From Ipomoea triloba (Eukaryota > Streptophyta > Magnoliopsida > Solanales > Convolvulaceae): a DNA stretch of 64,000 nucleotides. A program made the translations under genes and the position numbers. Shown piece after piece: positions 1 through 50,647 of the stretch. The stretch spans positions 27,017,699-27,081,698 of the forward strand of contig NC_044916.1 in the NCBI RefSeq assembly GCF_003576645.1, read 5' to 3'. The notes under the pieces are model-generated. The model did no database searches and had not been told where the DNA came from. It saw nothing but the letters and a program-made list of their open reading frames with translations. Positions within the stretch are counted from its first letter, which is position 1. Each line of letters begins with the position of its first letter.

Positions 1-62
1 TTTTTTTTTAACAAAGGAAAATTAAAACATAAATAACTAGGATAGAAATTACTAAGTGAAGT

Positions 63-1031
63 TTAAAACATTTCATCTTCCCACGGAACACGAGATGAAT
101 TGGCAAAGGAAGTAGAGTGAGCAAGATTTATCAATTGTTGATATCTTTTCTTTTTAGAAGAAGATTCCCCCAGTGTTTGAGTTTCTAAGCCTAACTCATT
201 GTTGGGGTTTGCTAACATCTGCTCACTTTCGTGTTCTAGCTCAATCACCTTCTCCCCTTGGTCAAAATCTTTCTTAAACTTGCTCAACAGTCGATCCATG
301 TACTGTAATTTCCTATGTGGCCATTGATTGATTCCCAACTCGGTGCATATTTTCTTCAGCTTGTCTTTTCCTATGTGTAATTCCCTTGCCGCCTGGACAA
401 CTGGTAAGTGGAAGAATTTTGAAATCATTTCAATGCTCCAAGATTTTTCAGAGGTGCTCTTCTTATCCACAATGGTTATGACTGGGTTGGATGCTTCTTC
501 TATAATTTCCTCAGTTGCAACCTCATTGATTTCTTTTACTTCTGGTACCTCATCCTTGAAATTCCAGATAGAATCAAATTCTTGGCCAAAGCTGCGAATG
601 TGTTCATCGCTCGAGGATCTTGAAGCTTCACCTACTGGAGCCAAAGTGCATTCCTCATACTGATAATCCCAGAGGGAGTTCTCAGTAATGGAATGGTTAT
701 ACTGGTAAGGAGGAGGAGTAGAAATTTCCAGGTTATCCTCCAACCTTAAGAATTTTTTCTGCGGCCATTCGGAAATCCCTAACTCCCTGCACCTAAACTT
801 TTTCGAAAATGTCCTTTTCTCCTCTTTTTCTTTCCTCTGAACTGCTACCTCCCTTGAATGTTCAATTTCAGCAACAGCCTCAACTCTAACAGTTGGTTGA
901 TTGAGTTCATGAAACTCATTCTCAAAATCACAGAGAGGAGTTAGATTCATCTCATCCCAAATTGAGGTATCATCAAAATCAGAACAATAAATGAATTGAG
1001 AATGAAAAGAGGATGAAGCATGATTCGTCAT
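63..1031 (-). CDS. RWP-RK domain (RKD-like) transcription factor ORF carried in the env position of a Gypsy element
   Basis: A 322-codon intronless ORF. The first ATG is at 1031; the same frame opens a few codons earlier at a TTG, after a TGA at 1065-1067. Residues about 194-250 form a complete RWP-RK DNA-binding domain with a conserved helix (FFHLPVVQAARELHIG), KKICTELGI and the signature QWPHRK. Residues about 75-100 contain a second, partial copy (CRELGISEWPQKKF), an internal duplication of the domain's C-terminal half. A basic KKKR stretch near the C-terminus may be a nuclear signal, and the N-terminus is acidic. RWP-RK/RKD proteins act in the nucleus in germ-cell and nitrogen control; RKD genes normally have introns, so a single exon suggests a processed copy. 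It lies 350 bp downstream of pol, same strand, with no LTR between. It could alternatively be a host retrocopy beside a truncated element. Confidence 0.72.
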   Translation of the reverse strand: MTNHASSSFHSQFIYCSDFDDTSIWDEMNLTPLCDFENEFHELNQPTVRVEAVAEIEHSREVAVQRKEKEEKRTFSKKFRCRELGISEWPQKKFLRLEDNLEISTPPPYQYNHSITENSLWDYQYEECTLAPVGEASRSSSDEHIRSFGQEFDSIWNFKDEVPEVKEINEVATEEIIEEASNPVITIVDKKSTSEKSWSIEMISKFFHLPVVQAARELHIGKDKLKKICTELGINQWPHRKLQYMDRLLSKFKKDFDQGEKVIELEHESEQMLANPNNELGLETQTLGESSSKKKRYQQLINLAHSTSFANSSRVPWEDEMF

Positions 1032-1178
1032 TTGATTAGAAAGATTAAATAGCAAGGAATCACATCAATGAAGAAGAATGAGAAAGTAAGCAGAGGTTGG
1101 GGAAAAACAACAAGCTAAGTCAAGAATCCTTATCAGAAGAAAGAAAAGACAATTTTAAAGGATAAAGAACAGGACATA

Positions 1179-1274
1179 CTAACCTGAGAGCTGAACACCA
1201 ATCTCGATTTCCGGGGCTTGCTGAGCACTAACGAATGGCTTTTGTAAAAAGAGCGATAGTACAATGTCGGCCAT
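1179..1274 (-). other. short ORF ending at a possible splice donor, upstream of the RWP-RK ORF
   Basis: A 31-codon ORF starting MADIVLSLFLQKP lies between gag-pol and the RWP-RK ORF. It runs into CTCTCAG|GTTAGTATG, a good splice-donor match at 1184/1183. No AG acceptor between the in-frame TGA at 1065 and the RWP-RK ATG would join it in frame, so it may be a leader exon or an upstream ORF. Function unknown. Confidence 0.25.
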
Positions 1275-1384
1275 TATTGAAACTAGGAAAATTAAATCAA
1301 CAAATTAAAAATCACATCAAATAAAATCTTGGGTTGCCTCCCAAGAAGCGCTCGTTTAAGGTCATGAGCTCGACCCCTGATTCT

Positions 1385-4300
1385 TTATTCATATATGGGC
1401 TGGAAGAGGTCCCAAACTGCCTTGGCCTCATTCCTCTCTGCTTCCTGCTCCCTGAATGCCTCATTAAACAGTTTCAATCTTTGCCCATTAACCACAAATG
1501 TTTTTCCCTCCTTGTTGGAAATTGCAACTGCTCCTGAGGGAAAATGCTCTTCCACTTGAAATGGTCCTGACCACCTTGATTTTAATTTACCTGGGAACAA
1601 CTTGAGTCTTGAGTTGTAGAGTAGAACTTGGTCTCCAGGTTCAAAGTATCTCCTCAAAATCCTTTTATCATGAAAATACTTGGTCCTNTCCATCCGGAAT
1701 TCTTCAAGCTCATTCAAACACATCAACCTCTTTTCTCTTGCCAAATCCTCATTCAGATTCAATCTTGCCACTGCCCAATATGCCTTGTGTTCATACTCAA
1801 CCGGCAAATGACATGATTTTCCAAAGACAAGTTTGAACGGTGAGACACCAATAGGGGTCTTGTAGGCAGTTCTCAGAGCCCATAGTGCTTCATCTAGCTT
1901 TAAAGACCAATCTTTTCTTGTTGGACTCACTACCTTTTCAAGGATTGACTTGATCTCCCTATTTGCCAACTCGACTTGTCCGCAAGTTTGAGAATGGTAT
2001 GGCGTAGAAAGTCGGTGATGAATGCCATACTTGAGAAGAATCCTTTCCAAGAGTTTGTTACAAAAATGCTTGCCATTGTCAGTGATGAAGGCTCTTGGCA
2101 TTCCAAACCTGGAAAAAATGTTCTTCTTAACAAATTTCAACACTGTCTTTGAATCATTCCTTGGGGTTGCAACAGCTTCCACCCATTTAGACACATAATC
2201 CACAGCTACTAGGATATACTCATTCCCAAATGACTTTGGAAATGGACCCATGAAGTCCATTCCCCATACATCAAAGAGTTCCACTTCGAGTATACCTTTC
2301 TGAGGCATTTCATGTTTCCTATTGATAGTGCCAGTCCTTTGACAATTGTTGCACTTGCTCACAAATTCCCTTGCAGTAGCAAACAAGGTAGGCCAAAATA
2401 GTCCAGATTGTAGGACTTTTAGAGCTGTGCGATCGGCACTCATGTGTCCACCATAAGGAGAGGAATGGCAATGGTTCAAGACACTAATGAATTCCTCTTC
2501 TGGTATGCATCTTCTTATAATTCCATCTGCACATCTTTTGAACAACAGTGGCTCATCCCAAAAGTAATCTTTCACATCATGCAAAAACCTTTTCCTTTTG
2601 TTGAAATTAAAATCCTTAGGGATGTAGCCACTTACCAGGTAATTCACAATGTCTGCGAACCATGGCACATACCGTTTTCCTAATCCAGTCAAGATGTACA
2701 ATGTTTCTCCCTTGAAGGAATCATCTATGGGCAATTCATCATCCTTTTGACCTTCAAGTCTGGACAGGTGATCGGCCACAACATTCTCGGATCCCTTCTT
2801 ATCTCTAATCTCCAGATCAAATTCTTGAAGTAGGAGCACCCATCGGATCAGCCTCGGCTTTGCATCTTTCTTTTGGAATAAATACTTCAAAGCAGCATGG
2901 TCGGTGTGAACTATCACCTTGCTCCCAAGCAAATAGGACCGAAATTTCTCCATAGCAAACACCACCGCAAGAAGCTCCTTCTCAGTTGTTGCATAGTTGA
3001 CTTGAGCATCATCAAGTGTGTGGCTTACGTAATGGATCACATAGTAGCACCTGTCCTTCTTTTGGCATAGCACCGCCCCAACTGCATAGTCACTCGCATC
3101 ACACATCAATTCGAACGGTAGATTCCAATCAGGAGGTTGAATGATTGGAGCATGACATAGAGCTTCCTTCAATCTGTTAAAAGCAATAAGACAAGATTCA
3201 TCAAAATTAAACGCCACCTCTTTCGCAAGCAAGTGCGTGAGGGGTTTTGCAATTTTAGAGAAATCTTTGATGAATCTTCTGTAAAACCCAGCGTGACCAA
3301 GAAAACTCCTTACTCCTTTTACCGAGCTTGGGGGTGGCAGTTTTGAAATGACTTCAATCTTTGCCGGGTCTACTTCAATTCCCCTTGCTGAAATTTTGTG
3401 GCCAAGAACTATGCCTTCAGTTGCCATAAAATGACATTTCTCCCAATTCAGAACTAAATTGACTTCTTGGCACCTGCACAGAACTTTATCAAGATTTATC
3501 AAACAATCATCAAACGACTTACCATAAACTGAGAAATCGTCCATGAATACTTCCATGATTTCTTCCACCATTTCAGAAAAGATTGCCATCATGCACCTTT
3601 GAAAAGTAGCTGGTGCATTACACAAACCAAATGACATCTTTTTGAAAGCAAAGGTGCCATATTGACATGTGAATGTTGTCATTTCTTGATCATCTGGGTG
3701 AATAGAAATCTGAAAATATCCTGAAAAACCATCTAGAAAACAGAAGTATTCATTCTTGGACATTCTCTCAAGCAATTGATCAATAAATGGAAGGGGGTAA
3801 TGATCTTTCCTAGTAGACTTATTCAATTTTCTGTAATCAATGCACATTCTATGACCAGTAACAAGTCTAGTAGGAATCAACTCATTATTGTCATTTTCAA
3901 TGACCGTTATACCGCCCTTTTTCGGAACAACATGTATGGGACTCACCCACTTGCTGTCCGAAATAGGGTATATAATGTCGGCCTCAAGCAATTTCAAAAT
4001 TTCCTTCTTAACTACATCCTTCAAATTGGGATTTAATCTCCTAAGGGGTTCAACAGTAGGTTTGGCATTCTCTTCTAAATAAATTCTATGCATGCAGTAC
4101 TTAGGATCAATGCCAATTAAATCACCAATAGTATAACCAATTACCCTCCTATGTTTTCTAAGCACATTAAGCAGCTTATCAATTTCATCACTATGCAAAG
4201 AAGAATTAACAATTACAGGATAAGTGGAGTTAGAGCCCAGAAAAACATACCTTAGACTAGGAGGTAAAGGTTTTAGTTCTACCTTTGGTGCATGTTCCTC

Positions 4301-7204
4301 TCCTAGCGGGTCAAGAGCAGCAAAAATTCTTTCTCCAGCCTCACCTTGATCAAAAATCCCTTGCTCGCATGTGTCCATCTCCTTTTGGGTGCAGATTCCA
4401 AATTTCTCAAGAAGTTCTTCAACAATCGAATACTCCTTGTCAATCTTCAAGACTTCACTAGGGTTTACCTCACAAATTTCCACCATATTGCATTCATCAA
4501 TGTAAGTTGGTTGGTGTTTGGCCATTTTGAATATATCAAATTCAATCTTGTGATCGGCCACTTCCATAACAAGCTTCCCCCTTTTTACATCAATGATCGC
4601 CCCAGCTGTGGCTAGAAATGGTCTACCAAGGATTATGGGTACCTTGGCATCTTCCTCAATGTCAAGAATCACAAAATCTCCCGGGATGTAGTATTGATCG
4701 ATCATTACTGGGATGTCTTCTAATACTCCCACTGGGCGCTTTATTGAGCGATCCGCCATTTGAAGTGTCATGGTAGTGGGTTTCGGCTCTCCAAGGTTAA
4801 GCCTCTTGCAAAGGGAGTAAGGCATGAGGCTCACACTAGCTCCGAGATCACATAGAGCACGACCCACAACAAATCCTCCAACGATACATGGAATAGCAAA
4901 ACTTCCAGGATCCTTCAACTTCGGTGGTAGATTCTTTTGTATTGCAGCGCATGCCAATGCTCCCTCACTAAGATCTATCACTGCACTCTTCTCCAGCTTC
5001 TTTTTATTACTCAAAATATCCTTCAAGAATTTCTTGTATGATGGTATTTGAGTAACAGCATCCACAAAAGGCATAGATATCTCCAACTTGTCAAGCATCA
5101 TTTTGAATTTGTTCTCCCTCTCGGTTTCTTTGGACTTCCACAACCTTTGTGGAAATGGCAATAAATTGCAAGGAATCACCGAATCATCAATTTGCTTACC
5201 CTTGTTCTTTTTACCTTGGCTAGGATCCTCCTTTGTCTGCACTTGTCCTTCGGGATCTCCTTTTTGTGGTAGAAGTTCTTTTTCTTTCCCTTCATTTTCA
5301 AGAGCAATGTTATCGTCTGGAAAGGGTGGATCAGTCAAAGACTTCCCGCTTCTAGTTACAACAGCATTGACTTGATTCCTAGGATTTTCAGTGCTTGCTG
5401 GAAGTTTACCATTAAATGAAGGTTGGGTAGAAGCTTGGGCACCTCCTCCTTGTTGTTGAGCTCGAAGACCTTCAACTTCGGTTTGCAATTTACTCATTTG
5501 TGTCATAATCATGTTCATGAAGGTTTTCATATCCGGATCTTGAGATGATTGTGAATACCCTTGCTGATTCTGAGTATTTGCTTGGCTCGTACCATGTCCT
5601 TGATTTCCTCTCCATTGCTGGTTGCCTTGATATCCACCTCTAAAGCCTTGGTTGCCTTGAAAACCAGGAGGTGGATTTCTCCCTTGAAAACCTTGATTGC
5701 TCCAAGAAGGATTGACTTGATTCCTCCATTGCGCTTGGCCTTGAGGTCTTTGGTATCCAATCATGTCAACTTGCTCTACAGTTGAATAAGAGTTGTGGCT
5801 GCCAGGTTCCAATAGTTGACAACTTTGAGAAGCATGAGCACCGCCACAAATAGCGCAACTGAGCACCATAGCCATAGTTGAAGATGGTGGTGGGCTTGGA
5901 GTTGTTGGTTGTACCATCGAGTAGGCTTGTGGTGTGGGTGGCATCTGGGATGAGGAAATGACTGACTGAGCATTCGCCTTCTTATTCAACACCATTTCTT
6001 TCAACATGTGTTGGATCGAATCCAGTTGGGCTTGCATGGCAACCTTCTCATCCACTTCAAACATACCTACTGCTTTCTCTTTCCTTGGTTGCTCGACTCT
6101 TTCATTGTACCAATACGCAGTGTTGGCTGTGATTCTTTCTATCAGCTGCTCTCCATGATCGGGTGTCATATCAAGAAACACTCCCCCCATAGAAGAAGTA
6201 TCCAGCACTGTCTTGTAGTTGTCCAGCAATCCTTCGTAAAAAGATGAAATGAAATCCCCAGGAGATAGGAGATTCCTAGGACACTGCCTCCTGAGATCCT
6301 TGAACCTCTTCCATGCCTCGTACAGATTTTCACTTCCGAATTGCTGGAAATTCTGGATTTGCTTCTTCAATTTTGCAGCCTTGGAGGGTGGATAGTATTC
6401 TTGCATGAAAGATTTGTACAGTTGGTCCCATGTGTTGAAATGATTTGGCCCGAAGGAATTGAGCCAACTCAGAGCTTGATCCCTCAACGAAAATGGGAAC
6501 AATCGCAGCTTGATTGCATCCATAGACACCCCATTCATCTTGATAGTTTGGCATATTCTGTCGAAATGGGTGATATGCGCCTTAGGATCTTCCAACTTTG
6601 AACCTCCAAATTGATTTGCTTGCACCAAGTTGATCATGGAAGTCTTGAGTTCAAAGTTATTGGCCTCGATTCCGGGATAGGCAATGCAATCTTCTTCTTC
6701 AAATTGGGGAGCCAGATGAGTAGCCATGGGTTGAAAATTTTGTGCTCTTTGGTAGAAGTAGGGTTGGGCTCTTTGAGGGAAATTCTGGTATGGGTCAAAC
6801 ATAGGGTTTGTGAAGAAATTTGGGTTCAAAAGATGAGGAAAATTTTGCATCCCGGCCCCTTGTAGTTGCGGTGGAAATTGAAAACCTAATCCTCCTCCTA
6901 AATAAGGATTTAGATTCGGATTTTCCATGGAGGTAGAGATTGGTATTCGTACCGGTGCCACTGGATCTTGAGAGGTATTGGGTTGAGCCTCCGTGTGTGC
7001 TCCTTGACTCGGGCTTGCTCGGGAACTACTTCCTCCGGGAGACATTTGGCCTGGGTTGCTAGATTCACCGGTCTCCATGTTTATCTCCACTGGTTCAAAC
7101 TCTTTCAACTGATTGGATGAGCCTTTCTTCAACTTCCTTAACTCTCTAGAGAGTTCTTGGTTTAAAGGACAAAGGTTTTGACCACCTTGTGATCTAGTTT
7201 GCAT
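1385..7204 (-). CDS. Gypsy (Athila-like) gag-pol polyprotein
   Basis: A single 1939-aa ORF from an MQTRSQG start, typical of Gypsy gag-pol; one residue is unknown because of an N at 1688. Domains in order: retrotransposon gag about 170-390; zinc-knuckle-like [13 protein letters not shown] near 455; aspartic protease near 785 with [11 protein letters not shown] (DLGA, as in many Athila-type elements); reverse transcriptase with DYRKLNK and the catalytic FMDD near 1221; RNase H with [12 protein letters not shown] near 1370 and [10 protein letters not shown]; integrase HHCC zinc finger ([10 protein letters not shown] to CNNCQRTG) near 1580-1630; integrase DDE core with [10 protein letters not shown] near 1651 and ITDNGKHF near 1708; and a C-terminal domain. 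All catalytic motifs are present and no stop interrupts, so it may be functional. It makes the particle, copies the element's RNA and integrates the cDNA. Confidence 0.95.
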
Positions 7205-7343
7205 AAATCAAAAGGTATCCAAATTCAAACAAACTTAAGAAAACACTTAAACAGTAAAAACAAAACTTGATCTCCTTCAAAATTCATTCATTTTAATGCT
7301 AAGATTAGATAATTAATTATACAATACAACCAGATATGCCAAT

Positions 7344-7360
7344 CCCCGGCAACGGCGCCA
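7344..7360 (-). other. Primer-binding site of the Gypsy element (tRNA-Asp type)
   Basis: On the plus strand the site reads CCCCGGCAACGGCGCCA, identical to the 3' end of plant tRNA-Asp including CCA. It lies 6 bp inside the LTR boundary at 7367. This primer type is characteristic of Athila-group elements. Confidence 0.85.
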
Positions 7361-7367
7361 AAAAGTT

Positions 7368-7451
7368 GATGTAAAAAGTGGTGTAGTGAATTTGTGGGTT
7401 AATTATATTGATGTAAAAAGTGGTGTAGTGAATTTGTGGGTTAATTATATC
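7368..7451. repeat. Tandem duplication, 42-bp unit x2, in the Gypsy LTR
   Basis: GATGTAAAAAGTGGTGTAGT begins at 7368 and again at 7410, with near-identical following sequence. Confidence 0.9.
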
Positions 7452-7474
7452 GTTCTCAAGGGATTGGGTTTTGT

Positions 7475-7600
7475 GGCATGTACTTGTATAGCAATTAAAT
7501 TCTTAGGCATTAAGATGGCATGTACTTGTATAGCAATTAAATTCTTAGGCATTAAGATGACATGTACTTGTATAGCAATTAAATTCTTAGGCATTAAGAT
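7475..7600. repeat. Tandem repeat, 42-bp unit x3, in the Gypsy LTR
   Basis: The unit containing CATGTACTTGTATAGCAATT starts at 7475, 7517 and 7559 (exact 42-bp spacing) with a single base change (GGCATG to GACATG) in the third copy. Confidence 0.92.
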
Positions 7601-9458
7601 GAATAAATTTAACAAGAATCCAAGCAATCATATATGAGTTGATATGTAACAAGCTATGACAGGTTCATCAAGAATTAAAAGCAATATTACAATTGGTATA
7701 AACTCTGATAATTAAAGATAGGACTCGAATTAAGGAGAATTATCTTATAGATGCAATAACAAGATTTGGGGAAAACAATTAATTTAAGAGTTCAATGAAT
7801 TGCACAAAAGAATCTTTAATCTAAATTTCATTTTCATGAACTAAAGATAAAGATTAGAACAAGGATTTGCTCCACTTTCGTGACATATCAATTCCTAGTT
7901 CTTAGAGGACATAAGCAATTTAAAACCACAATGTTCTTTACTTTCGTAAATTAAATTGGGTGCATGCAAAGAGTAGCTTGATTTCAACATATAACTTCCA
8001 TTATAAAGTGAAATCATCCAAAGGCAAGTTAACAAATGTTACGTACCATTTACTAACAAGATTTCAATTAAATCTATGCATACTTCAATAAACTCTTGAA
8101 TTAAAGCCTTCCCCTTTATGAAATATTCATGAACTTAGCATCAATAAAGATAATCCTACCCTAATTCAAGTCCTTAATGCAACTACTCACAATTCATAAT
8201 GGAATACAACAAACTAACAATATTTAAATTCATAAGCATGGTAAATAAATTGTAAAGAGATAAAGGGAACAAGAAAACTTATGGATTGAAGACCAAACTC
8301 TTGGAGTTTCCTCCTACACTCTTGCTTGAAGAAAAACACAACACTAAAACTAAGATATGAAAGCTAGAATGAGAGGAGATAGAAGGAATTGGTGAGGAAT
8401 GGTGTGTTGAAGTTTGAGAGTTACAAGGCTTTATATAGGCATCAAAAGGGAGCAAAGATGGACAATTACATATGCAATGACCTCACATTCCATCTGAATT
8501 TGGAAATGGGGAATTACATATGCCATGACCTCACATATCATAATGAGAAAGAAGATGGAAAATTTCGCAAGCAATGACATCACTGCACGCAGCTTCATCT
8601 TCCGGGCTGTTTTTCTCCATTCTCCGTTCAGAATTATGAATTTTGTATTTCTGGTAAAGTTGTAGCCCTTGAAGTCTTCTTTCCAACGGTGCAAAGATCA
8701 CTCAATTTGGATATTCCTATGCTGAGATATGGTAAAAATACCGAACAGTGGACAACTTGTGCAGAAATTTCAGATTTTAGACACTTGTTCCACTTTTGCT
8801 TTGGTTTATCCATATGATCAATCACCATTCAAAATATCACTCTTTGATTCCATTATTGCCTGATCTTTAATGATGAAAATGGACCAAATCTTCTTTGCTT
8901 TTGTCCTCCACTTTAATTCATCATCATCCATCTTCTCATTTTTGTTCTGGTCCCTTCATGATCCTCCTTGTCTTCATGATTTCCCTGATATCTCCTACTA
9001 GCAATTAAACACATTAGGATGGCTTATTAAAGATGAAAATTACAAATTAAACTTAGGATTTCTCTAAATCATCCCATTAAATGCAATACGGCCTAATTTT
9101 CTTTACTTTATTCCAAATAAGATGATAGTTGCAAACATTAATCAAAGTAAAGAAAATCAAGGCTATAATGATCACAATTTATACAATCTAGTGGACAAAT
9201 AAGGTTAAATATGGGGATTAAATATGATCAAATATGCACTTATCATAAGTCAGACGTTGAAAATATATATACTAACCCAGCTATATATCGATGGAGTAGT
9301 GGTTATATTATTTCTTATCTACTCAATAGCTTCCTCGAAGTTACATTTGTCATTGCTTGTCATTATTTCTTCAGCTTTAAATTTTCTTTGTTTTGCTCTC
9401 AAATCTTACCCACTCTCATCTAATTCAAAATTAATTTTTCGGTGAGAGATAGAAATTG

Positions 9459-9799: not shown

Positions 9800-9925
9800 C
9801 ACACACACACACACGCACACACACACACATATATATATATATATAAAGGGTCACACTTGTGTGAGACCGTCTCATGGGTCTCAATCTGTGAGACGGGTCG
9901 GGTCAACATAATATGGGTCATATTT
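9800..9925. repeat. CA/TA microsatellite and a partial GAGACCGTCTCA-type MITE end
   Basis: A (CA)n/(TA)n run (9800-9845) is followed by CACTTGTGTGAGACCGTCTC and a GAGACGGGTCGGGTC block. These are the terminal motifs of the MITE family also found at 10091-12235 and 59529-59961. A matching right end was not identified here. Confidence 0.5.
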
Positions 9926-10090
9926 AATTTATGGGTTTGAATTATTAGTTGGTCTGTTTCGGCGCTATATTTTCAACAATTGGATACGGGCTTTTTAAAG
10001 CCCATTTTATTCGGTTAAGCAACTTTTAAAGCACCTAATTCCCGTTGCGCCAAGATTACTTTATCTCAAATGTCAAAATCTTTAAAATTA

Positions 10091-12235
10091 GGAAAAAACT
10101 TGTGTGAGACCGTCTCACGGATCTCAATCCGTGAGACGGGTCGGATCTTTTATTAAAGGGGTCAACATGTGCATCTCACGCCCTCCCCTCATCATTTCTC
10201 TACCCTCAACGTTTCTCTCTCTATTTCGGCCACAAGATCAATCTGCCATTTCCGATCCTTCGCTCCCATCTCCTCCGCTCAAGCTCTTTGTCTCCCCCCG
10301 GCCATCTCCGATCCTTCGCTCAAGCTCTCCACCTCCTCCCATCTCCTCCACCTCCATTTTTGCTGTAGTCTCTAACTCCGGCCAGTATTGCAACTCGGCA
10401 AATGAGAATTTCTCTCATCTCAGTTAAGTTTGAGCAGAAATTGCAATGTATCTTTTTTGTGCCATAGTACATGTTTGGAAGCTTGTGAATAATTAATTAT
10501 TGTGATGATTTGAGTAATTCCTGTTCCAACTTTTTTTTTTTGAGTAATTCATGTTCCAACTTTAATTACATTTTACATTGAGGAATGCTGAAAATTTGAA
10601 ACTGAACCTCTATGTTCACTTCTTCCTTCCCAAAAACTCCATATTGAATTGAATTTAACCCACCTATTTACTCAAAAACTCCATATTGAATTGAATTTAA
10701 CCCACCTATTTACTCAATGATTGCATATTGAATTGAATTTAACCCACCTATTTACTCAATGATTGCACATAATCTTACATATTCTTAACATGACTCCAAG
10801 TTTTAGTCTTACAGGGAAAAGCAATACTTTGAACAAAGAAAACGAAAACAACAACATCATCAAACAGATGAGCAAATAACACATATAGTCAGCAAAGTAA
10901 GAATAATATGTCACTGAATGTTCTCAGTATTAGATTTGTGCTAAAAAGTATTGTGTTTGATGATTAGGGTATTGATTATTCATTTGTGCTATGAAGTACT
11001 ACTACATTTAGGGTAACAAGTACTAGATTTAATACTTAAAGTATTATGTTTAAGTCTTAAAGTTATGATTATTCATTTGTACTATAAAGTATTAGATTTG
11101 TGCAATAAAATATTGTTTTTGATGATTAGAGTATTGATTATTCAATTCATTTGTGTTATGAAGTATTACATTTAGGGTATAAAGTATTAGATTTAATGCT
11201 TAAAGTATTGTGTTTAAGTCTTAAAGTTATGATTATTCATTTGTGGTATGAAGGGTTTTGTGCATAAGAGAGAGGGGAGAAAAAGCTTAAAAAGAGAGAA
11301 GGTGTAAAGTTTGATTACAAGAAGAAAAATGAGTGTGATCATTTGAGAGTGGTAAAATGAGTGTGAAGAAAAAATGAGAAGAATGAGAAGTGATAAAAGC
11401 AGAGGGGATATGAGAGAATGAGAGCTGTGAGTATTAATGATTTTGTTTTCTTTGATGTAGGTTAGTGTGGCAGTAGCTCTGGCAAAGGTAAAGCCAAACA
11501 GTGAGGCTCTGAATGTGGTGCTGAGTTGGGAGCTTTTGGTTTTGGTATGTTGCAGCAAACTAAAATTAAATGACAGATGAATTTTAGTTTTCTTTGTTCA
11601 AAGTATTGTTTTTCCCTGTAAGACTAAAACTTGGAGTCATGTTAAGAATATGTAAGATTATGTGCAATCATTGAGTAAATAGGTGGGTTAAATTCAATTC
11701 AATATGGAGTTTTGGGAAGGAAGAAGTGAACACAGAGGTTCAGTTTCAAATTTTCAGCATTCCTCAATGTAAAATGTAATTAAAGTTGGAACATGAATTA
11801 CTCAAAAAAAAAAAGTTGGAACAGGAATTACTCAAATCATCACAATAATTAATTATTCACAAGCTTCCAAACATGTACTATGGCACAAAAAAGATACATT
11901 GCAATTTCTGCTCAAACTTAACTGAGATGAGAGAAATTCTCATTTGCCGAGTTGCAATACTGGCCGGAGTTAGAGACTACAGCAAAAATGGAGGTGGAGA
12001 GCTTGAGCGAAGGATCGGAGATGGCCGGGAGGAGACAAAGAGCTTGAGCGGAGGAGATGGGAGCGAAGGATCGGAAATGGCAGATTGATCTTGTGGCCGA
12101 AATAGAGAGAGAAACGTTGAGGGTAGAGAAATGATGAGGAGAGGGCGTGAGATGCACATGTTGACCCATTTAATAAAAGATCCGACCCGTCTCACGGATT
12201 GAGATCCGTGAGACGGTCTCACACAAGTTTTTTCC
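10091..12235. mobile_element. Foldback-type DNA transposon with very long terminal inverted repeats
   Basis: The left arm (10091 to about 10845) and right arm (about 11586 to 12235) are inverted copies of each other, beginning GGAAAAAACTTGTGTGAGAC and ending with its complement. Each arm starts with a local palindrome around GAGACCGTCTCAC. The left arm is longer because one 42-bp block is triplicated (from 10641). The roughly 740-bp centre (10846-11585) is AT-rich with internal repeats around AGTATTAGATTTGTG and has no recognisable transposase. The arms contain C/T-rich, gene-like sequence (10180-10380), possibly captured. No convincing target duplication was found. It could be a non-autonomous Mutator-like or foldback element. 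Confidence 0.8.
10641..10766. repeat. 42-bp tandem repeat x3 in the left arm of the foldback element
   Basis: ATATTGAATTGAATTTAACC recurs at 10641, 10683 and 10725 (42-bp spacing). The right arm has the block once, near 11680-11710, so the expansion occurred after the arms formed. Confidence 0.9.
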
Positions 12236-13284
12236 ATATTTAAATACTACTCATAATCTTTTTTTTTTTTAATATAGTCAAGATTTTCACGGGACAGCTA
12301 GTCTGGAAATTTAAGTAAAATAAATAATATGTTGGAAAAATTAAATTTTTGGTCTTTCATTATATCCAAGTACGTACACATTTGGTTGTCTGGAAAATAA
12401 ATTCCATGGAAATGAAATTCTTAATATTTGAGAAAATGTGTTTTATATTTTTTTTTGAAAGACGTGGGTTTTTTTTTTTTTTTTTTGAAAAGAAAGACGT
12501 GTTTCATACTTTGTTTGGATGAAGAAAATAAGTTATTGTAGGCCATAGCATTTGGGAACAAAAGTTCAACCGGAAAAGCACCGATTCACACCTTTATATG
12601 GACTTTATTAATTACACTAATTTTTTGACGCTGGTGTGAATGAGATAATGTCTAATGATTATTTTTTAAATAAATACTTTAAAGTATATTAATACAATAT
12701 TATATAGGAGATGTTCATGCATACGCAATTGAGTGTTGAATTTGTTTATTTAAATCGGTAATTCAAAATATATGAATGCAAGATAATATAGGAGTGATTC
12801 ATTATAATTGTCCCTAAAATTAATGTTTGTAACTTTGTAGTAATAACATGCTGGTCTAAATATTTAGTTTAAAAACAATAGTCGAAATAAAAAATTACTT
12901 TTTGTATGAATTTCTCTAAGTCTTATTAATTCTCTTTTGGGTAGCATAGCCATTGTCTTCATCTTTAGTACATGTTTTCTTCTTTTTATTGGTAGTGTGT
13001 CATGTGTAATTGAGTTATAGGTGATAGCATAGAGGACAACGTCATACAATGAGATTATGGTGTAGGAAGCTGTGGATTTGCCTTGTTGTGTATATGACTG
13101 AAATCTTAGTTGTACTATGAACTCTTGATTTTGTAAGCGTCTGTTGATATTTGGCAGTGATAGTCTTTTTCCAACAAGTTTCACGTATACGTTGTGAGAT
13201 GTGTGTCGTAAATTATCATGTGAAAATATTGAACAAAGTATTCATATTTATTATATTTGTATAAAATAATTGGTAAATAAGTAA
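12236..13284. other. AT-rich intergenic stretch, nothing recognised
   Basis: Poly-T tracts (12258-12270, 12468-12486) and AT-rich sequence. Open frames here show no domain or composition suggesting coding. Confidence 0.6.
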
Positions 13285-14998: not shown

Positions 14999-15325
14999 TA
15001 GGGGTGTGCATTCGGTTAACCGAACGGTTAACCGAACCGAACTACCAAAACCGAATTAACCGAACTTCCCAAACCCTTTAACCGTTTACCGAACCGAAGT
15101 TTCTATTTTCGAATTAACCGAACCGAAATTTTTTTCGGTTAATCGGTCGGTTAACCGATTAACCGAAATTTTAAATCAAATTTTAAAATTCTTTAAATGC
15201 AAAGTAATCATCCAAACTCAAACATCATGATTCCTGTATAATCGCTGGTGGAGTGGTTGGTGGCGGATGCGTGGGCGAGTGGCGGTGGCTGTCAGCGAGA
15301 GCAGAGATAGACAGTGAGGGGCGGT

Positions 15326-16290
15326 GGGCCAACCGGCCGATGGCGGCTGCGTGGGCGAGTGGCGGTGGCTGTCAGCGAGAGCAGAGATGGTAGTGGCTGG
15401 TGGCTGGTGGCGGTGGCTGGTGGCCGATGGCGGACTGGCGGTGGCTGATGGCAGTGGCTGGTGGCTGGTGGCGGTGGCTGGTGGCAGTGGCTGGTGGCAG
15501 TGGCTGGTGGCGGTGGGCCAACCGGCCGATGGCGGCTGCGTGGGCGAGTGGCGGTGGCTGTCAGCGAGAGCAGAGATGGCAGTGGCTGGTGGCTGGTGGC
15601 GGTGGCTGGTGGCCGATGGCGGACTGGCGGTGGCTGATGGCAGTGGCTGGTGGCTGGTGGCGGTGGCTGGTGGCAGTGGCTGGTGGCAGTGGCTGGTGGC
15701 GGTGGGCCAACCGGCCGATGGCGGCTGCGTGGGCGAGTGGCGGTGGCTGTCAGCGAGAGCAGAGATGGCAGTGGCTGGTGGCTGGTGGCGGTGGCTGGTG
15801 GCCGATGGCGGACTGGCGGTGGCTGATGGCAGTGGCTGGTGGCTGGTGGCGGTGGCTGGTGGCAGTGGCTGGTGGCAGTGGCTGGTGGCGGTGGGCCAAC
15901 CGGCCGATGGCGGCTGCGTGGGCGAGTGGCGGTGGCTGTCAGCGAGAGCAGAGATGGCAGTGGCTGGTGGCTGGTGGCGGTGGCTGGTGGCCGATGGCGG
16001 ACTGGCGGTGGCTGATGGCAGTGGCTGGTGGCTGGTGGCGGTGGCTGGTGGCAGTGGCTGGTGGCAGTGGCTGGTGGCGGTGGGCCAACCGGCCGATGGC
16101 GGCTGCGTGGGCGAGTGGCGGTGGCTGTCAGCGAGAGCAGAGATGGCAGTGGCTGGTGGCTGGTGGCGGTGGCTGGTGGCCGATGGCGGACTGGCGGTGG
16201 CTGATGGCAGTGGCTGGTGGCTGGTGGCGGTGGCTGGTGGCAGTGGCTGGTGGCGGTGGCTGGTGGCGGTGGCTGGTGGCGGCTGATTGG
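15326..16290. repeat. 189-bp GC-rich minisatellite, about five units
   Basis: The landmark AACCGGCCGATGGCGG occurs at 15331, 15520, 15709, 15898 and 16087, exactly 189 bp apart; the last unit is truncated into GGCGGTGGCTGGT sub-repeats. Because 189 is a multiple of three, long frames stay open on both strands (a 393-codon minus frame at 15218-16399 and two plus frames). Their translations are low-complexity (HRHQPPAT or GWWRWLV) and are not accepted as genes. Confidence 0.93.
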
Positions 16291-36461: not shown

Positions 36462-37898
36462 CAACTCTACCCATTACTCAAACAATAACAATTGATATCC
36501 CTATGCTAGACGATGATAACCACAAAGAGTGGAAAGAGGCTATTCTCCTACATTTAGGTTTGTTAGGAGTGGATTACGCTGTTCTCAATGATGAGCCACC
36601 CGCGGTTACTGCGGTAAGCACTACCGCACAAAAAGAACTGTGGGAGCGATGGGAGAGATCCAATCGCATGGGCGTGTACCTCATCAAGTCAAAACTTCCT
36701 AAGGGAATACGGGGTACCGTTGAAGACATTGAGAAAGCTAAGCCTTTGCTTAAAGCCATAGATGATCAATTCGTTGATTCTAAGAAATCTTTGGCTAGCA
36801 CACTCATAATGAAGTTTATCAATCTGCGTCTGTCCATTGTTAAGGGAACACGCAAACACATCATGCAAGTTAGAGAAATTGCGACTCAATTGAAGAAATT
36901 GGAGATCATTTTACCAGATTCTTTTGTGGTGCATTTTGCACTCAATACCCTTCCTCAGGAGTATAGCCCATTTAAGATTTCCTACAATACACATAAAGTG
37001 AACTGGTCTATCAATGAATTGATAACCATGTGTACTCAAGAGGAAACAAGGCTTCTGACTGAGATTGGGGAAAGTGCTTTTATGGCCACAACAAGGTCCA
37101 AGGGAAAATCTGGAAAGACCAAGGGTTCCACCAAAGCAGCTAAGGGCAAATTAACTCCAAAAGCTGACATAAAGAAGATACAAAAGTGTTTCTTCTGTAA
37201 AAAGAAGGGGCACATGAAGAAAGATTGTATCAAATATAAGAAGTGGAAATCCCAGCAAGGTACTGTTCCCTCTTCTTTTGTATGTTTCGAATCTAATATG
37301 TCAGAAGTTAATACTTATTCTTGGTGGGTTGACTCTGGTGCAACAATCCACATTGCAAACTCTTTGCAGGACATGACAAACCTGAGAAAGTCGACGGGAA
37401 CTGAGTGTAGCATCTTCTCTGGAAACAAGATTGCGTCACCAGTGGAAGCTGTCGGAGTTTGCAATTTACTTTTGGATAGTGGTTTTGTTTTGACGTTAGA
37501 AAAGACACTTTATGTTCCTAGCTTCTCAAGGAACTTAATTTCAGTTTCTAGACTTGTACCCTTTGGATTCAGTTTTGAATTTAATACCAATAATTTCAAG
37601 TTATTTCGGAATTCTACTTGTGTTGGTACTGGTACATTGTCTGATTGTCTCTTTCGTCTTAACCTAAAGAATGATTCAGTTTACAATTCTTTACACGTTC
37701 AAAATGGCACCAAACGGTGCAGTATTAACGATAATTCCTCAATGTTGTGGCATCGGAGATTAGGTCATATCTCCCTAGAGCGCATTAAAAGGTTGGTAAA
37801 GGTTGGAGTACTTTCTACTCTAGACTACACTGACTTTGAGACTTGCATTGACTGCATCAAGGGTAAGCAGACAAACAAGTCAAAGAAAGGTGCCAATA
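36462..37898 (+). CDS. Copia gag-pol, part before the assembly gap
   Basis: Open from the proposed acceptor at 36461; first internal Met at 36503. Positions counted from that Met: a UBN2-type gag core (HKEWKEAILLHLG) about 1-210; CCHC zinc knuckle CFFCKKKGHMKKDC near 228; aspartic protease with WWVDSGATIHI near 273; GAG-pre-integrase domain with MLWHRRLGHISLERI near 415 and CIDCIKGKQ. The sequence is then lost in Ns at 37899. The gap size is an estimate, so the apparent frame change across it means nothing. Together with the next part it encodes the particle protein, protease and integrase. Confidence 0.9.
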
Positions 37899-38601
37899 NN
37901 NNNNNNNNNNNNNNNNNNNNNNNNNNNNNNNNNNNNNNNNNNNNNNNNNNNNNNNNNNNNNNNNNNNNNNNNNNNNNNNNNNNNNNNNNNNNNNNNNNNN
38001 NNNNNNNNNNNNNNNNNNNNNNNNNNNNNNNNNNNNNNNNNNNNNNNNNNNNNNNNNNNNNNNNNNNNNNNNNNNNNNNNNNNNNNNNNNNNNNNNNNNN
38101 NNNNNNNNNNNNNNNNNNNNNNNNNNNNNNNNNNNNNNNNNNNNNNNNNNNNNNNNNNNNNNNNNNNNNNNNNNNNNNNNNNNNNNNNNNNNNNNNNNNN
38201 NNNNNNNNNNNNNNNNNNNNNNNNNNNNNNNNNNNNNNNNNNNNNNNNNNNNNNNNNNNNNNNNNNNNNNNNNNNNNNNNNNNNNNNNNNNNNNNNNNNN
38301 NNNNNNNNNNNNNNNNNNNNNNNNNNNNNNNNNNNNNNNNNNNNNNNNNNNNNNNNNNNNNNNNNNNNNNNNNNNNNNNNNNNNNNNNNNNNNNNNNNNN
38401 NNNNNNNNNNNNNNNNNNNNNNNNNNNNNNNNNNNNNNNNNNNNNNNNNNNNNNNNNNNNNNNNNNNNNNNNNNNNNNNNNNNNNNNNNNNNNNNNNNNN
38501 NNNNNNNNNNNNNNNNNNNNNNNNNNNNNNNNNNNNNNNNNNNNNNNNNNNNNNNNNNNNNNNNNNNNNNNNNNNNNNNNNNNNNNNNNNNNNNNNNNNN
38601 N
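37899..38601. other. Assembly gap (703 Ns)
   Basis: Unknown sequence inside the Copia element; it should contain the integrase DDE core. Confidence 0.99.
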
Positions 38602-40695
38602 TCTAAGGGTTATAGGTTTTATTGTCCATCTCATACTACTAGGATAGTGGAATCAAGAAATGCTAAGTTTCTTGAAGATGACTTAATCAGTGGGAGTGAT
38701 CGATTTAAGGACTTAGTCCCTTCATTTGATCATACGGACTCTCAGCCTTCTACGTCATCTAGTGGTGTTGTACTTATCCGCAGTGCTCATCCAGTTCTGC
38801 CTGCAAATATACCGCCCACTATTGAGATTCCACAAGCTGTTGAGGCTCAGCCTTTGGAAGAACCAGTTCAGGACTTACAGCAACCCCCTGAACCGGTTTT
38901 TGAACCAATGGTTGAACCAAATCAGGATTTACAGCAAGATCCTGAACCGATGCAGACTGAGCCAATTCAAGAACTGCTCCCAGTTCCTGAAGAGGTTGTT
39001 GCCCCACAGCCTGTGCAAGGTGGTGGAGAACCAACTTTAAGACGGTCTACACGGATAAGGCGATCAGCACTTCCTAGCTATTATGAAACGTATCTACAAG
39101 AATCTGACATAGGAGCCGAAAATGATCCTGAAACATTTTCTCAAGCAACAAATTGTGCACAGTCTGACTTATGGCTTGAAGCCATGAAGGATGAGATAAA
39201 TTCCATGAAGAGCAATGGGGTTTGGGATCTTATTGAGTTGCCTAATGGGGCCAAGGCCATTGGCTGTAAATGGGTTTTTAAAACTAAAAGAAACTCATTA
39301 GGCAACATTGAGAGATACAAGGCCAGACTTGTTGCAAAGGGATTTACACAAAAGGAAGGAATCGATTACAAGGAGACATTTTCTCCTGTATCAAAGAAAG
39401 ATTCATTTCGAGTCATACTGGCTTTAGTTGCGCATTTTAATCTTGAGTTGCAACAAATGGATGTGAAAACTGCTTTCCTTAACGGTGATCTAGAAGAGGA
39501 GGTTTATATGAAACAACCTGAAGGTTTCTCTTCTAGGGGTGGTGAGAATTTAGTCTGTAAGCTTAAGAAATCCATATACGGTTTAAAACAAGCTTCCCGT
39601 CAATGGTATATCAAATTCGATGGAGTAATTTCTTCATTTGGTTTTGTTGAAAATCCCTTGGATCCTTGTATATACCAAAAGGTGAGTGGGAGTCGAATAT
39701 GTTTCCTTGTTTTATATGTGGATGACATCTTACTTGCCACCAATGATAAGGGGATGCTTCGTGATGTGAAACAATTTCTCTCTAAAAACTTTGACATAAA
39801 GGATATGGGTGATGCCTCTTATGTTATTGGCATTAAAATTCATAGAGATAGGTCCCGGGGCATACTGGGTTTATCTCAAGAAACCTATATAAGCAAAGTA
39901 TTAGAAAGATTTCAGATGAAAAATTGTTCACCAAGCGTTGCTCCCATTGCAAAGGGGGACAAATTTAGTTTGGATCAATGTCCGAAAAATGACTTGGAGA
40001 AAGAATCCATGGAGAACATCCCTTATGCTGCAGCGGTTGGGTGTCTTGGATATATTCAAGTCTGTACAAGGCCGGACATTGCTTTCGCGGTTGGAATGCT
40101 CGGACGTTACCTACACAATCCGGGATTAGACCACTGGAGAGCTGTGAAGAAGGTTCTAAGGTATCTAAAAGGAACCAAAGACTACAAGCTTGGGTTTAGG
40201 CAGACGGACAATCTAGATGTTGTCGGCTACTCTGATGCTGACTTCGCTGGCTGTGTTGATTCTCGAAAATCAACTTCTGGGTGCGTCTTTATTATGGCCG
40301 GTGGGGCTATCTCATGGAGAAGTGTCAAACAGTCCTTAATAGCTACTTCTACATGCGAAGCCGAGTTCGTTTCCTGTTTCGAGGCTACTTCTCAGGGTGT
40401 TTGGCTAAAGAATTTTATCTCAGGGCTTAGAGTTATGGACTCTATATCAAAGCCATTGAAAGTCTACTGTGACAACTCAGCTGCAATCTTCCTGGCTAAG
40501 AACAACAAAAGTGGGAGTCGAAGTAAGCACATCGACATCAAATTCTTAGCCATTAGGGAGCGTGTCAAGAATAAAGTTGTAATCATTGAACACATTAGGA
40601 CTGAGCTGATGTTGGCAGATCCCTTGACTAAAGGCATGCCTCCATTTAAATTCAAGGATCTGGTTCAGAAAATGGGACTTTCATTTATTTTGTAA
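38602..40695 (+). CDS. Copia pol, part after the assembly gap (reverse transcriptase and RNase H)
   Basis: The frame is open from the first base after the gap (SKGYRFYCPSH) to TAA at 40693-40695. A Pro/Glu-rich spacer (about 38750-39030) precedes the reverse transcriptase: WVFKTKRN, ARLVAKGFTQ, DVKTAFLNGDLEEEVYM and the catalytic YVDDILLA (near 39714). RNase H follows, with SDADFAGCVDSRKSTSG, CEAEF and a SKHIDIKF end typical of Copia. The C-terminus is MADPLTKG-like (LADPLTKGMP). All visible catalytic motifs are intact. Confidence 0.93.
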   Translation, partial: SKGYRFYCPSHTTRIVESRNAKFLEDDLISGSDRFKDLVPSFDHTDSQPSTSSSGVVLIRSAHPVLPANIPPTIEIPQAVEAQPLEEPVQDLQQPPEPVFEPMVEPNQDLQQDPEPMQTEPIQELLPVPEEVVAPQPVQGGGEPTLRRSTRIRRSALPSYYETYLQESDIGAENDPETFSQATNCAQSDLWLEAMKDEINSMKSNGVWDLIELPNGAKAIGCKWVFKTKRNSLGNIERYKARLVAKGFTQKEGIDYKETFSPVSKKDSFRVILALVAHFNLELQQMDVKTAFLNGDLEEEVYMKQPEGFSSRGGENLVCKLKKSIYGLKQASRQWYIKFDGVISSFGFVENPLDPCIYQKVSGSRICFLVLYVDDILLATNDKGMLRDVKQFLSKNFDIKDMGDASYVIGIKIHRDRSRGILGLSQETYISKVLERFQMKNCSPSVAPIAKGDKFSLDQCPKNDLEKESMENIPYAAAVGCLGYIQVCTRPDIAFAVGMLGRYLHNPGLDHWRAVKKVLRYLKGTKDYKLGFRQTDNLDVVGYSDADFAGCVDSRKSTSGCVFIMAGGAISWRSVKQSLIATSTCEAEFVSCFEATSQGVWLKNFISGLRVMDSISKPLKVYCDNSAAIFLAKNNKSGSRSKHIDIKFLAIRERVKNKVVIIEHIRTELMLADPLTKGMPPFKFKDLVQKMGLSFIL

Positions 40696-49358: not shown

Positions 49359-50647
49359 TTGGTGCTTTCATTGAGAGCCGAGATCAGATCTCAGGCTAAA
49401 TTCACAAAATCACAAACCACTCAGTTCATCTCATCACTGTTGATGGTGCAATCCGGATCCAGCCCCGCTCTGATGGTTCTAATTGAGTGAACAATGGTCA
49501 TCCTGGATCCAGCAGCTCCCATGGTTCTTATCGAGTGAACAATGGTCATCCCGGATCCAGCAGCTCTCATGGTTCTCATCGAGTGAACAATGGTCACCCC
49601 TCGGGTGATCTTCGTGGGCAACTCAATGGTCACCCCTCGGGTGATCTTCGTAAACAGCTCAATAGTAACCAAGTGGGAGATCGCCGTAATGGTGATCTCC
49701 GTAGCCAACTCAACAACAACCACGGGCACTTCCTCCTCAAGTGCATCTGCCTCCTTCACTTGTGCGTTCACCTCTTGTAAGCAGTGGCGTTACCCAGTGA
49801 ACGCTGCTCCCATCCAAGTAGTGGACTTACAAGCAGTGGCGTTATCCAGTGAACGCGGCTCCCTGCCAAGCCGTGAACTTCCTCACACAGCGTCACCTCA
49901 TCAAGTGATGTCACCTCCTCAAGTGGCGTCACCTCCACGAGCAGTGTCACCACCTCGAACAACGTCAACACCTCAAGTGGTGTCACCTCCACGAGCAGTG
50001 TCACCACCTCGAACAACGTCAACACCTCGAGCAGCGTCACCTGCACGACGGCGTCACCTCCTCAAGTGGCGTGGCTCCTCAAGCAGCGTCACCTCATCTA
50101 GTGCATCCGCCCTTTTCAAGTGGCGTTGCTCCTCAAGCAGCGTCACCTCATCAAGTGGCGCTGCTCCTCAAGTAGCGTCACCTCATCAAGCAGGTGTCAC
50201 CTCATCAAATGACGTTGCTCGTCACCTCATCAAGCGGGTGTCACCTCATCAAGTGGCGATGCTCCTCAAGCAGTGTCACCTCATCAAGCGGGTGTCACCT
50301 CATCAAGCTGGTGTCACCTCATCAAGTGGCGCTGCTCCTCAAGCAGCGTCACCTCATCAAGCGGGTGTCACCTCATCAAGCTGGTGTCACCTCATCAAGT
50401 GGCGCTGTTCCTCACGCAGCGTCACCTCATCAAGTGGTGTCACCTCCTCAAGTGGCGTCACCTCCACGAGCAGTGTCACCACCTCGAGCAGCATCACCAC
50501 CTCGAACAGCGTCACCACCTCGAGCAGCGTCACCTGCTCGAGCGGCGTCACCACCTCGAGCAGACTCACCACCTCGAGCAGCATCACCTCTTCGAGCGGT
50601 GAGTGGTGTCACCTCCTCGAGCAACTTCACCTCCTCAAGTGGTGAGT
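49359..50647 (+). repeat. Internal region, first copy: array of CACCTC/CAAGTGGCG repeats
   Basis: Tandem short units of 11-33 bp such as GCGTCACCTCATCAAGTGG. Many overlapping frames are open simply because stop codons are absent from the repeat; none shows a protein domain. Confidence 0.75.

What the first reader, a model, noticed from the sequence alone, without database searches (positions are those of the whole stretch)
63..1385. RWP-RK (RKD-like) transcription factor ORF in the env position of an Athila-like Gypsy element
Seen: an uninterrupted frame with a complete RWP-RK domain (QWPHRK signature) plus a second half-domain lies 350 bp downstream of an intact gag-pol, on the same strand, with no LTR terminus between them. 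Known: Athila elements carry an env-like ORF there, and RKD proteins control egg-cell and embryo programmes. Inference: the element has captured a germline regulator that could be co-expressed with it, possibly helping it act in the germ line. I know of no described Gypsy family with this cargo.
Basis: partly seen in the sequence, partly recalled or inferred. Interest (0 to 1): 0.87.

Follow-up and report, generated by a model that had tools for sequence, protein, structure and literature searches.

The report
Retrotransposon carrying a plant embryo regulator
A morning-glory (Ipomoea) jumping element of the Athila type appears to have picked up an intron-free copy of a plant gene of the RKD kind, a family that controls egg-cell and embryo programmes, and near-identical copies of that gene now sit at several places in Ipomoea genomes; whether the element uses it is not known.

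Summary
On the minus strand an uninterrupted Athila-lineage gag-pol (7204-1385) is followed, after a 353-nt spacer without an LTR end, by an open 322-codon RWP-RK (RKD) ORF (1031-63; Pfam E 5e-22) with one complete RWP-RK domain and the C-terminal half of another. It is unlikely to be a lone host gene beside an element. Eight Ipomoea protein clusters (20 sequences, 79-98% identical) match it, the four I. triloba clusters on contigs of four different, chromosome-like lengths. Two I. batatas gene models are collinear with the window element across 5.2 kb. Its sister group is a family of multi-exon, two-domain Ipomoea RKDs. The ORF reads through inferred host intron positions, so I infer capture as cDNA, then amplification. 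Not shown: the 3' LTR (outside the window), pol beside the I. triloba copies, expression, function. Recent changes do not spare the DNA-binding domain (5 of 31); the LTR is not significantly enriched for the RKD motif. So: a captured germline-type regulator in the env/aORF position, a cargo I met in no paper searched, within the known class of gene-capturing, aORF-bearing Gypsy elements. Germline function is untested.

The parts
7367..9245 (-). 5' LTR, 1879 nt, TGATAAGTGCAT...CTTTTTACATCA (TGAT/ATCA termini); TATATAA box near 8438; 42-bp tandem repeats near its 3' end
   Evidence: the inner boundary is inferred from the TGAT/ATCA termini and the PBS that follows; no second LTR available to confirm
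7343..7360 (-). primer-binding-site region TGGCGCCGTTGCCGGGGA just after the LTR
   Evidence: naming it a Gypsy/Athila-type PBS is recalled
1385..7204 (-). gag-pol, one uninterrupted frame, 1939 aa (one ambiguous base at 1688)
1032..1384 (-). pol-RKD spacer, 353 nt, no LTR terminus
1182..1274 (-). short upstream ORF in the same frame (MADIVLSLFLQKPFVSAQQAPEIEIGVQLSG); part of it is an exon of I. batatas model P0008 (78% over 18 aa)
   Evidence: no Pfam or PDB match
1115..1183 (-). candidate 69-nt intron: donor TCAG|GTTAGT at 1183, acceptor ACTTAG| before 1114. The spacer exon of P0008 ends at this donor; by eye, the RKD exon of P0002 starts at this acceptor
   Evidence: sequence; models; splicing itself not shown, and neither model uses both sites together
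63..1031 (-). RKD-like ORF, 322 aa, intronless
735..818 (-). remnant of RWP-RK domain 1 (residues 72-99; N-terminal half missing relative to Ipomoea host-like RKDs)
285..443 (-). complete RWP-RK domain 2 (residues 197-249, QWPHRK); confidently modelled helical region
1..9 (-). run of 9 A (minus strand) at the window edge, 53 nt after the stop; possible trace of a poly(A) tail of the captured mRNA, or chance
   Evidence: not testable inside the window

Best explanation
An Athila-lineage Ty3/Gypsy element in Ipomoea captured an mRNA copy of a two-domain RKD transcription-factor gene of its host downstream of pol (the sense aORF or env position), and the element then multiplied with it. Shown: the ORF, its place behind an uninterrupted gag-pol, collinear I. 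batatas models, dispersed near-identical ORFs in I. triloba, and no introns at inferred host intron positions. Inferred: that the ORF lies inside the LTRs; template switching onto a spliced RKD mRNA during reverse transcription as the route; expression from the 5' LTR, perhaps by a spliced subgenomic mRNA; a nuclear DNA-binding product. Speculative (about 0.2-0.3): the product binds RKD sites in host or LTR promoters and shifts cells or the element towards egg/embryo-type transcription. The confidence given is for capture and amplification, not for function.
For: RWP-RK domain E 5.4e-22. 8 of the 15 homologues found among 887 candidates are Ipomoea proteins with 79-98% local identity, standing for 20 sequences; the four I. 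triloba clusters lie on contigs of 38.09, 23.65, 33.45 and 27.17 Mb. P0002 and P0008 (I. batatas) map collinearly on the window element: 5295-5188, 4471-4280 or 4253, for P0008 also the spacer 1238-1185, then RKD 1106-66 or 890-381. Tree: 7 of these 8 proteins plus the window form one clade (98/99), sister to 9 Ipomoea host-like RKDs (98/97); these 17 rows are apart from 6 other plant RKDs (100/100, long branches flagged). Host-like models that skip exons (P0020, P0024, P0025) reveal junctions near EE|V, LLK|LEDE, ELN|V and |YLSK; the element ORF reads through the places that correspond. Gag-pol uninterrupted.
Against: The 3' LTR is not seen, so 'inside the element' is inferred. Pol next to the I. 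triloba copies was not seen. The two I. batatas models could be alleles or homeologues of one locus. None of the 120 gag-pol relatives listed (of 4126 hits; proteins of about 1066-3393 aa, scored on residues 1480-1939) carries PF02042 and none exceeds 70% identity, so no close, annotated, long gag-pol of this family was seen. Private residue changes do not avoid the DNA-binding domain (5 of 31, 17.6% expected, p = 1.0). LTR RKD-motif sites are not significant: 6 with at most 3 mismatches, shuffled mean 3.6, reached by 27 of 200 shuffles. The first residue of the RWPxRK signature is Q here. None of the sampled host genes is the direct parent: the element clade is sister to them, not nested.
Confidence: 0.87

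Rival explanations
1. Passive passenger (compatible with capture, a rival only about use): the RKD ORF does nothing for the element; it rides along and decays after each insertion, reading frames surviving only because the copies are young.
For: Private changes spread evenly over domain and non-domain (5 of 31 in the domain, p = 1.0); no significant motif enrichment in the LTR; three models (P0005-P0007) skip parts of the N-terminal half, which may hide broken frames; domain 1 is already half missing in the six sequences that cover it (window, P0001-P0004, P0008).
Against: The frame is open over its whole length in the window copy and in P0001 and P0002, and up to the last residue in P0003, which stands for 11 sequences, across two species at 91-98% identity; over the longer term domain 2 changed less than the rest (19 of 53 against 158 of 264 differences to host-like P0021), though part of that time precedes capture.
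Confidence: 0.55
2. Ordinary host RKD gene (or processed pseudogene) beside which an Athila element happened to insert or lost its 3' end; the proximity is chance.
For: No 3' LTR visible; a host-like RKD family exists in Ipomoea, apparently with tandem neighbours (fused models P0025, P0026); the I. batatas models might be the orthologous locus.
Against: Collinear pol-RKD order in two I. batatas models, one including the spacer; near-identical ORFs on four I. triloba contigs; no introns where host-like genes have them; no LTR end between pol and the ORF.
Confidence: 0.08
3. Another, non-autonomous or nested element (for example a retrocopy or DNA transposon carrying the RKD gene) inserted downstream of pol and now travels with the Athila element, rather than capture by template switching.
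For: Only 353 nt of spacer and 62 nt of downstream sequence are visible; a run of A at the very edge would fit a retrocopy tail.
Against: None of the 25 inverted-repeat pairs listed (40 nt or longer) flanks the ORF (shorter ones would be missed). It differs from the best explanation only in the route of entry.
Confidence: 0.15

Closest known systems
Plant LTR retrotransposons with sense additional ORFs between pol and the 3' LTR (aORF-3S), e.g. Athila env-like (review PMC7264820, parts 1 and 2 of 3 of the text read)
   Same: Same position and strand, Athila lineage; spliced expression is reported there for Bagy2 and is possible here
   Different: The sense ORFs described there are env-like; additional ORFs in plant Gypsy elements most often lack known domains (PMC9289625); here a recognisable host transcription factor
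Orchid Gypsy elements with an AlkB m6A demethylase ORF (PMC9289625: abstract and introduction, section 12 and passages seen)
   Same: Narrowly distributed acquisition of a host-type gene as an extra ORF of a Gypsy element, in many element sequences of one genus
   Different: Enzyme with activity shown in vitro; different cargo. That screen of 121 angiosperm genomes reports 15 unusual domains, among them a B3 DNA-binding domain in Aegilops; its main text mentions neither RWP-RK nor Ipomoea; supplements not seen
Bs1 of maize (as described in PMC7264820, and in passages of PMC13317346)
   Same: LTR element carrying transduced host gene sequence
   Different: Segments of three other host genes, none a full-length ORF; here one nearly whole regulator behind an uninterrupted gag-pol
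Host-like RKD proteins of Ipomoea (P0009, P0016-P0022, P0024)
   Same: Sister clade; similar N-terminus (MANH.../MTNH...), two-domain layout, similar C-terminal block
   Different: The element version lacks introns, half of domain 1 and two short stretches, and has QWPHRK instead of RWPYRK

Membership tests
Ty3/Gypsy Athila lineage | gag-protease-RT-RNaseH-integrase order in one polyprotein | tested here: met
   order from Pfam coordinates; the protease match is weak (E 0.003, below cut-off)
Ty3/Gypsy Athila lineage | closest relatives are Athila-type, including a protein bearing PF03078 (ATHILA ORF-1; name recalled) | tested here: inconclusive
   P0031 (Arabidopsis suecica) carries PF03078 at 55% identity; other near relatives are unclassified gag-pols, best identity Cuscuta; no tree of pol against reference lineages was built
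Ty3/Gypsy Athila lineage | two LTRs flanking the element | tested here: inconclusive
   5' LTR found; 3' LTR outside the window
Ty3/Gypsy Athila lineage | env-like ORF after pol | tested here: inconclusive
   the ORF there is RKD; anything more than 62 nt further is outside the window
RKD subfamily of RWP-RK transcription factors | complete RWP-RK domain | tested here: met
   modelled with block means of pLDDT 89-94 in residues 201-250
RKD subfamily of RWP-RK transcription factors | RWPxRK signature | tested here: inconclusive
   QWPHRK: first residue changed, rest kept
RKD subfamily of RWP-RK transcription factors | groups with RKD proteins by tree | tested here: met
   sister to Ipomoea RKD1-like, 98/97; only RKD-type hits were in the tree, NLPs were not
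RKD subfamily of RWP-RK transcription factors | sequence-specific DNA binding, egg/embryo expression | not testable with these tools
   no RNA or binding data
Transduplicated (captured) host gene | introns of the parent absent | tested here: met
   inferred from protein models of related genes, not from parent DNA
Transduplicated (captured) host gene | same junctions in several dispersed copies | tested here: inconclusive
   pol, spacer and RKD in P0008, pol and RKD in P0002; for the I. triloba copies flanks not seen

The most novel reading that the evidence does not exclude
The element carries a working RKD-type factor, made from a spliced subgenomic RNA, that switches on egg-cell or embryo transcription (its own LTR included), so that the element transposes in cells that reach the next generation: a retrotransposon that encodes its own germline access factor, as a retrovirus encodes a transactivator.
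Probability: 0.17. Interest if true: 0.93.

Novelty: new variant of a known kind. Interest (0 to 1): 0.66.

Why it matters
An RKD factor can by itself start an embryo programme (OsRKD3 induces somatic embryos: PMC10114336, title, start of abstract and passages seen; egg-like programmes from other RKDs are recalled). An element that spreads copies of such a regulator would be a direct test case for whether plant LTR retrotransposons use captured regulators to reach the germ line, and a source of misleading 'RKD2-like' gene annotations in sweet potato and its relatives. Even as a passive passenger it is a datable capture with a host family still present for comparison.

Tried and rejected
LTR scan with the RKD-like motif RWCBTTTCRTYTTCY taken from PMC10114336: no significant enrichment at 2, 3 or 4 mismatches (73, 27 and 26 of 200 shuffles reach the count). 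Spacer ORF as a piece of a CC-NLR resistance gene (a resemblance from recall): no Pfam match up to E 10, no PDB match; left as a lead. Tail of P0003 after EDEM as a read-through into the LTR: no convincing match in the window. A second element copy in the window: none, only repeats within the LTR and a 77-bp match of the flank. Viral contigs: 31 stretches matched a pattern, none confirmed. Solved structures: no RWP-RK relative by sequence up to E 1; Foldseek gave no match with E <= 0.001, its weak matches include helix-turn-helix regulators. Host gene beside an element by chance: judged unlikely, see rivals.

Rows dropped: the tree used the window and 22 of the 26 RKD-type proteins fetched (P0008, P0023, P0025 and P0026, fused or partial models, left out; P0002 cut to its RKD part). 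The alignment used the window and 18 of 26. The structure alignment A2 used the window and 21 of 26 (also without P0002). The private-change count used the window and 7 of the 8 element-clade proteins (no P0008) and ignored the last residue position of P0003. Alignment A1 used 9 of 15 proteins.

Literature: the statement that I met no report of an RWP-RK-carrying retrotransposon rests on searches (open-licence PMC only), mostly on their listings. Passages were read in PMC11728184, PMC5234144, PMC9289625, PMC10114336, PMC13317346, PMC10011142 (71: pearl millet RWP-RK expansion; the passages shown do not link it to capture) and PMC7387646 (72: RWP-RK only in a reference title on a MITE at CitRKD1). 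Other listed papers were not opened; supplements were not seen.
Full report
Observation. The minus strand of the left 9.2 kb reads, in order: a 5' LTR (9245-7367, TGAT...ATCA), a primer-binding-site region (7360-7343), one gag-pol frame of 1939 codons (7204-1385), a 353-nt spacer and an RWP-RK ORF from ATG 1031 to a stop at 63-65. Pfam finds RWP-RK at E 5.4e-22 in the ORF, and gag, RT, RNase H, integrase and a weak protease match (E 0.003, below its cut-off) in gag-pol. The LTR start sequence does not recur between 1 and 7204. The 3' LTR is beyond the window edge; 62 nt follow the ORF.

Organism and copies. A protein search (15 hits from 887 candidates) gave eight Ipomoea clusters with 79-98% local identity, 20 member sequences in all; the next hit is an I. 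batatas 'RKD1-like' at 34%, then RWP-RK proteins of Kalanchoe, Gossypium, Capsella, Camelina and Colocasia. The four I. triloba clusters lie on contigs of four different lengths of chromosome size, so the ORF is dispersed. I infer that the window is from Ipomoea or a very close relative; I did not fix the species.

The other copies look element-borne, as far as can be seen. Two I. batatas gene models, P0002 and P0008, are chimeras whose pieces map collinearly onto the window element: an alternative-frame piece within gag-pol (5295-5188), a pol piece (4471-4280 or 4253), in P0008 a spacer piece ending at the candidate splice donor (1238-1185), then the RKD ORF (1106-66 or 890-381). The pol pieces are 89 and 95% and the RKD pieces 92% identical to the window. 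The two models differ in sequence but could be alleles or homeologues of one locus in hexaploid sweet potato. For the I. triloba copies I could not see flanks. Of 120 listed gag-pol relatives (4126 hits, scored on residues 1480-1939, only long proteins eligible) none carries PF02042 and the best identity is 70% (Cuscuta europaea), so no closely similar long gag-pol protein was seen.

Origin. A search with the RKD1-like protein (14 hits from 1117 candidates) uncovered an Ipomoea family with two complete RWP-RK domains, with fused models that suggest tandem neighbours. A tree of 23 rows puts seven element-type proteins and the window in one clade (98/99), sister to nine host-like rows (98/97); these 17 are separate from six other plant rows (100/100; long branches were flagged). 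So the parent was probably a two-domain Ipomoea-type RKD, but none of the sampled host genes is the direct parent. Models that skip exons reveal host junctions (near EE|V, LLK|LEDE, ELN|V, |YLSK); the element ORF reads through the places that correspond, which points to a spliced mRNA as source. Compared with host-like proteins it lacks about 31 residues of domain 1 and two short stretches; the domain-1 deletion is shared by the six sequences that cover the region (window, P0001-P0004, P0008; P0005-P0007 skip it).

How it may work. Shown: an open ORF with a DNA-binding domain that models confidently (block means of pLDDT 89-94 in residues 201-250; residues 1-194 are below 50). Inferred: transcription from the 5' LTR and perhaps a spliced message: the spacer holds a donor (TCAG|GTTAGT at 1183) at which the P0008 spacer exon ends and an acceptor (before 1114) at which, by eye, the P0002 RKD exon starts; these are gene models, not transcripts, and neither uses both sites. 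Splicing is reported for Bagy2 (PMC7264820). Unknown: whether the product is made. Tests that could have favoured use did not: private changes fall in the domain as often as elsewhere (5 of 31), and LTR sites resembling the published RKD motif are within chance (27 of 200 shuffles reach the count at 3 mismatches). In the longer view domain 2 is the more conserved part (19 of 53 against 158 of 264 differences to P0021), but this includes time before capture. Between the I. triloba and I. batatas types the domain differs at 3 of 53 and the rest at 19 of 267 sites (P0001 against P0002), not discriminating.

Known context. Sense ORFs after pol are known from Athila and others (PMC7264820). A screen of 121 angiosperm genomes found 15 unusual domains in Gypsy elements, among them a B3 DNA-binding domain in Aegilops, and an orchid AlkB ORF active in vitro (PMC9289625); its main text mentions neither RWP-RK nor Ipomoea. 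Bs1 is the classic captured-gene case. Ten literature searches listed no RWP-RK-carrying retrotransposon that I recognised; they cover open-licence papers only and most listed papers were not opened. One root transcriptome paper reports RWP-RK (RKD) proteins expressed in sweet potato but not in I. trifida (PMC5234144, passages); whether those are element copies is unknown.

Verdict. Most likely a real capture of a germline-type regulator by an Athila-lineage element, amplified in Ipomoea: a new variant of a known kind. The germline-help idea stays open and is directly testable.

Noticed in passing
window 10082-12244: Long, almost perfect inverted repeat (arms of 290, 255 and 125 nt, 98-100% complementary, with a repetitive centre) just upstream of the element; its end sequence ACTTGTGTGAGACCGTCTCA recurs at 9855: a foldback or MITE-like element.
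   Followed up: no
window 15320-16000 (scan ended at 16000): GC-rich 189-bp tandem repeat whose units are 99% alike, open in several frames.
   Followed up: no
window 36503-40695: Copia-type gag-pol on the + strand (by reading the ORFs; no Pfam scan) with a 703-N gap at 37899-38601.
   Followed up: no
window 49590-50645 and 51260-51793: Two ORFs with the same first 160 or so residues about 1.7 kb apart: a local duplication.
   Followed up: no
window 1182-1274 (-): Spacer ORF MADIVLSLFLQKPF..., partly kept in I. batatas P0008; by recall it resembles the first residues of CC-NLR resistance proteins, so it may be a second captured fragment; no database support.
   Followed up: partly
protein P0023 (I. 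batatas): A host-like RKD model fused to a replication factor A C-terminal-like region (E 0.0005, below cut-off), perhaps a neighbouring transposon or gene.
   Followed up: no
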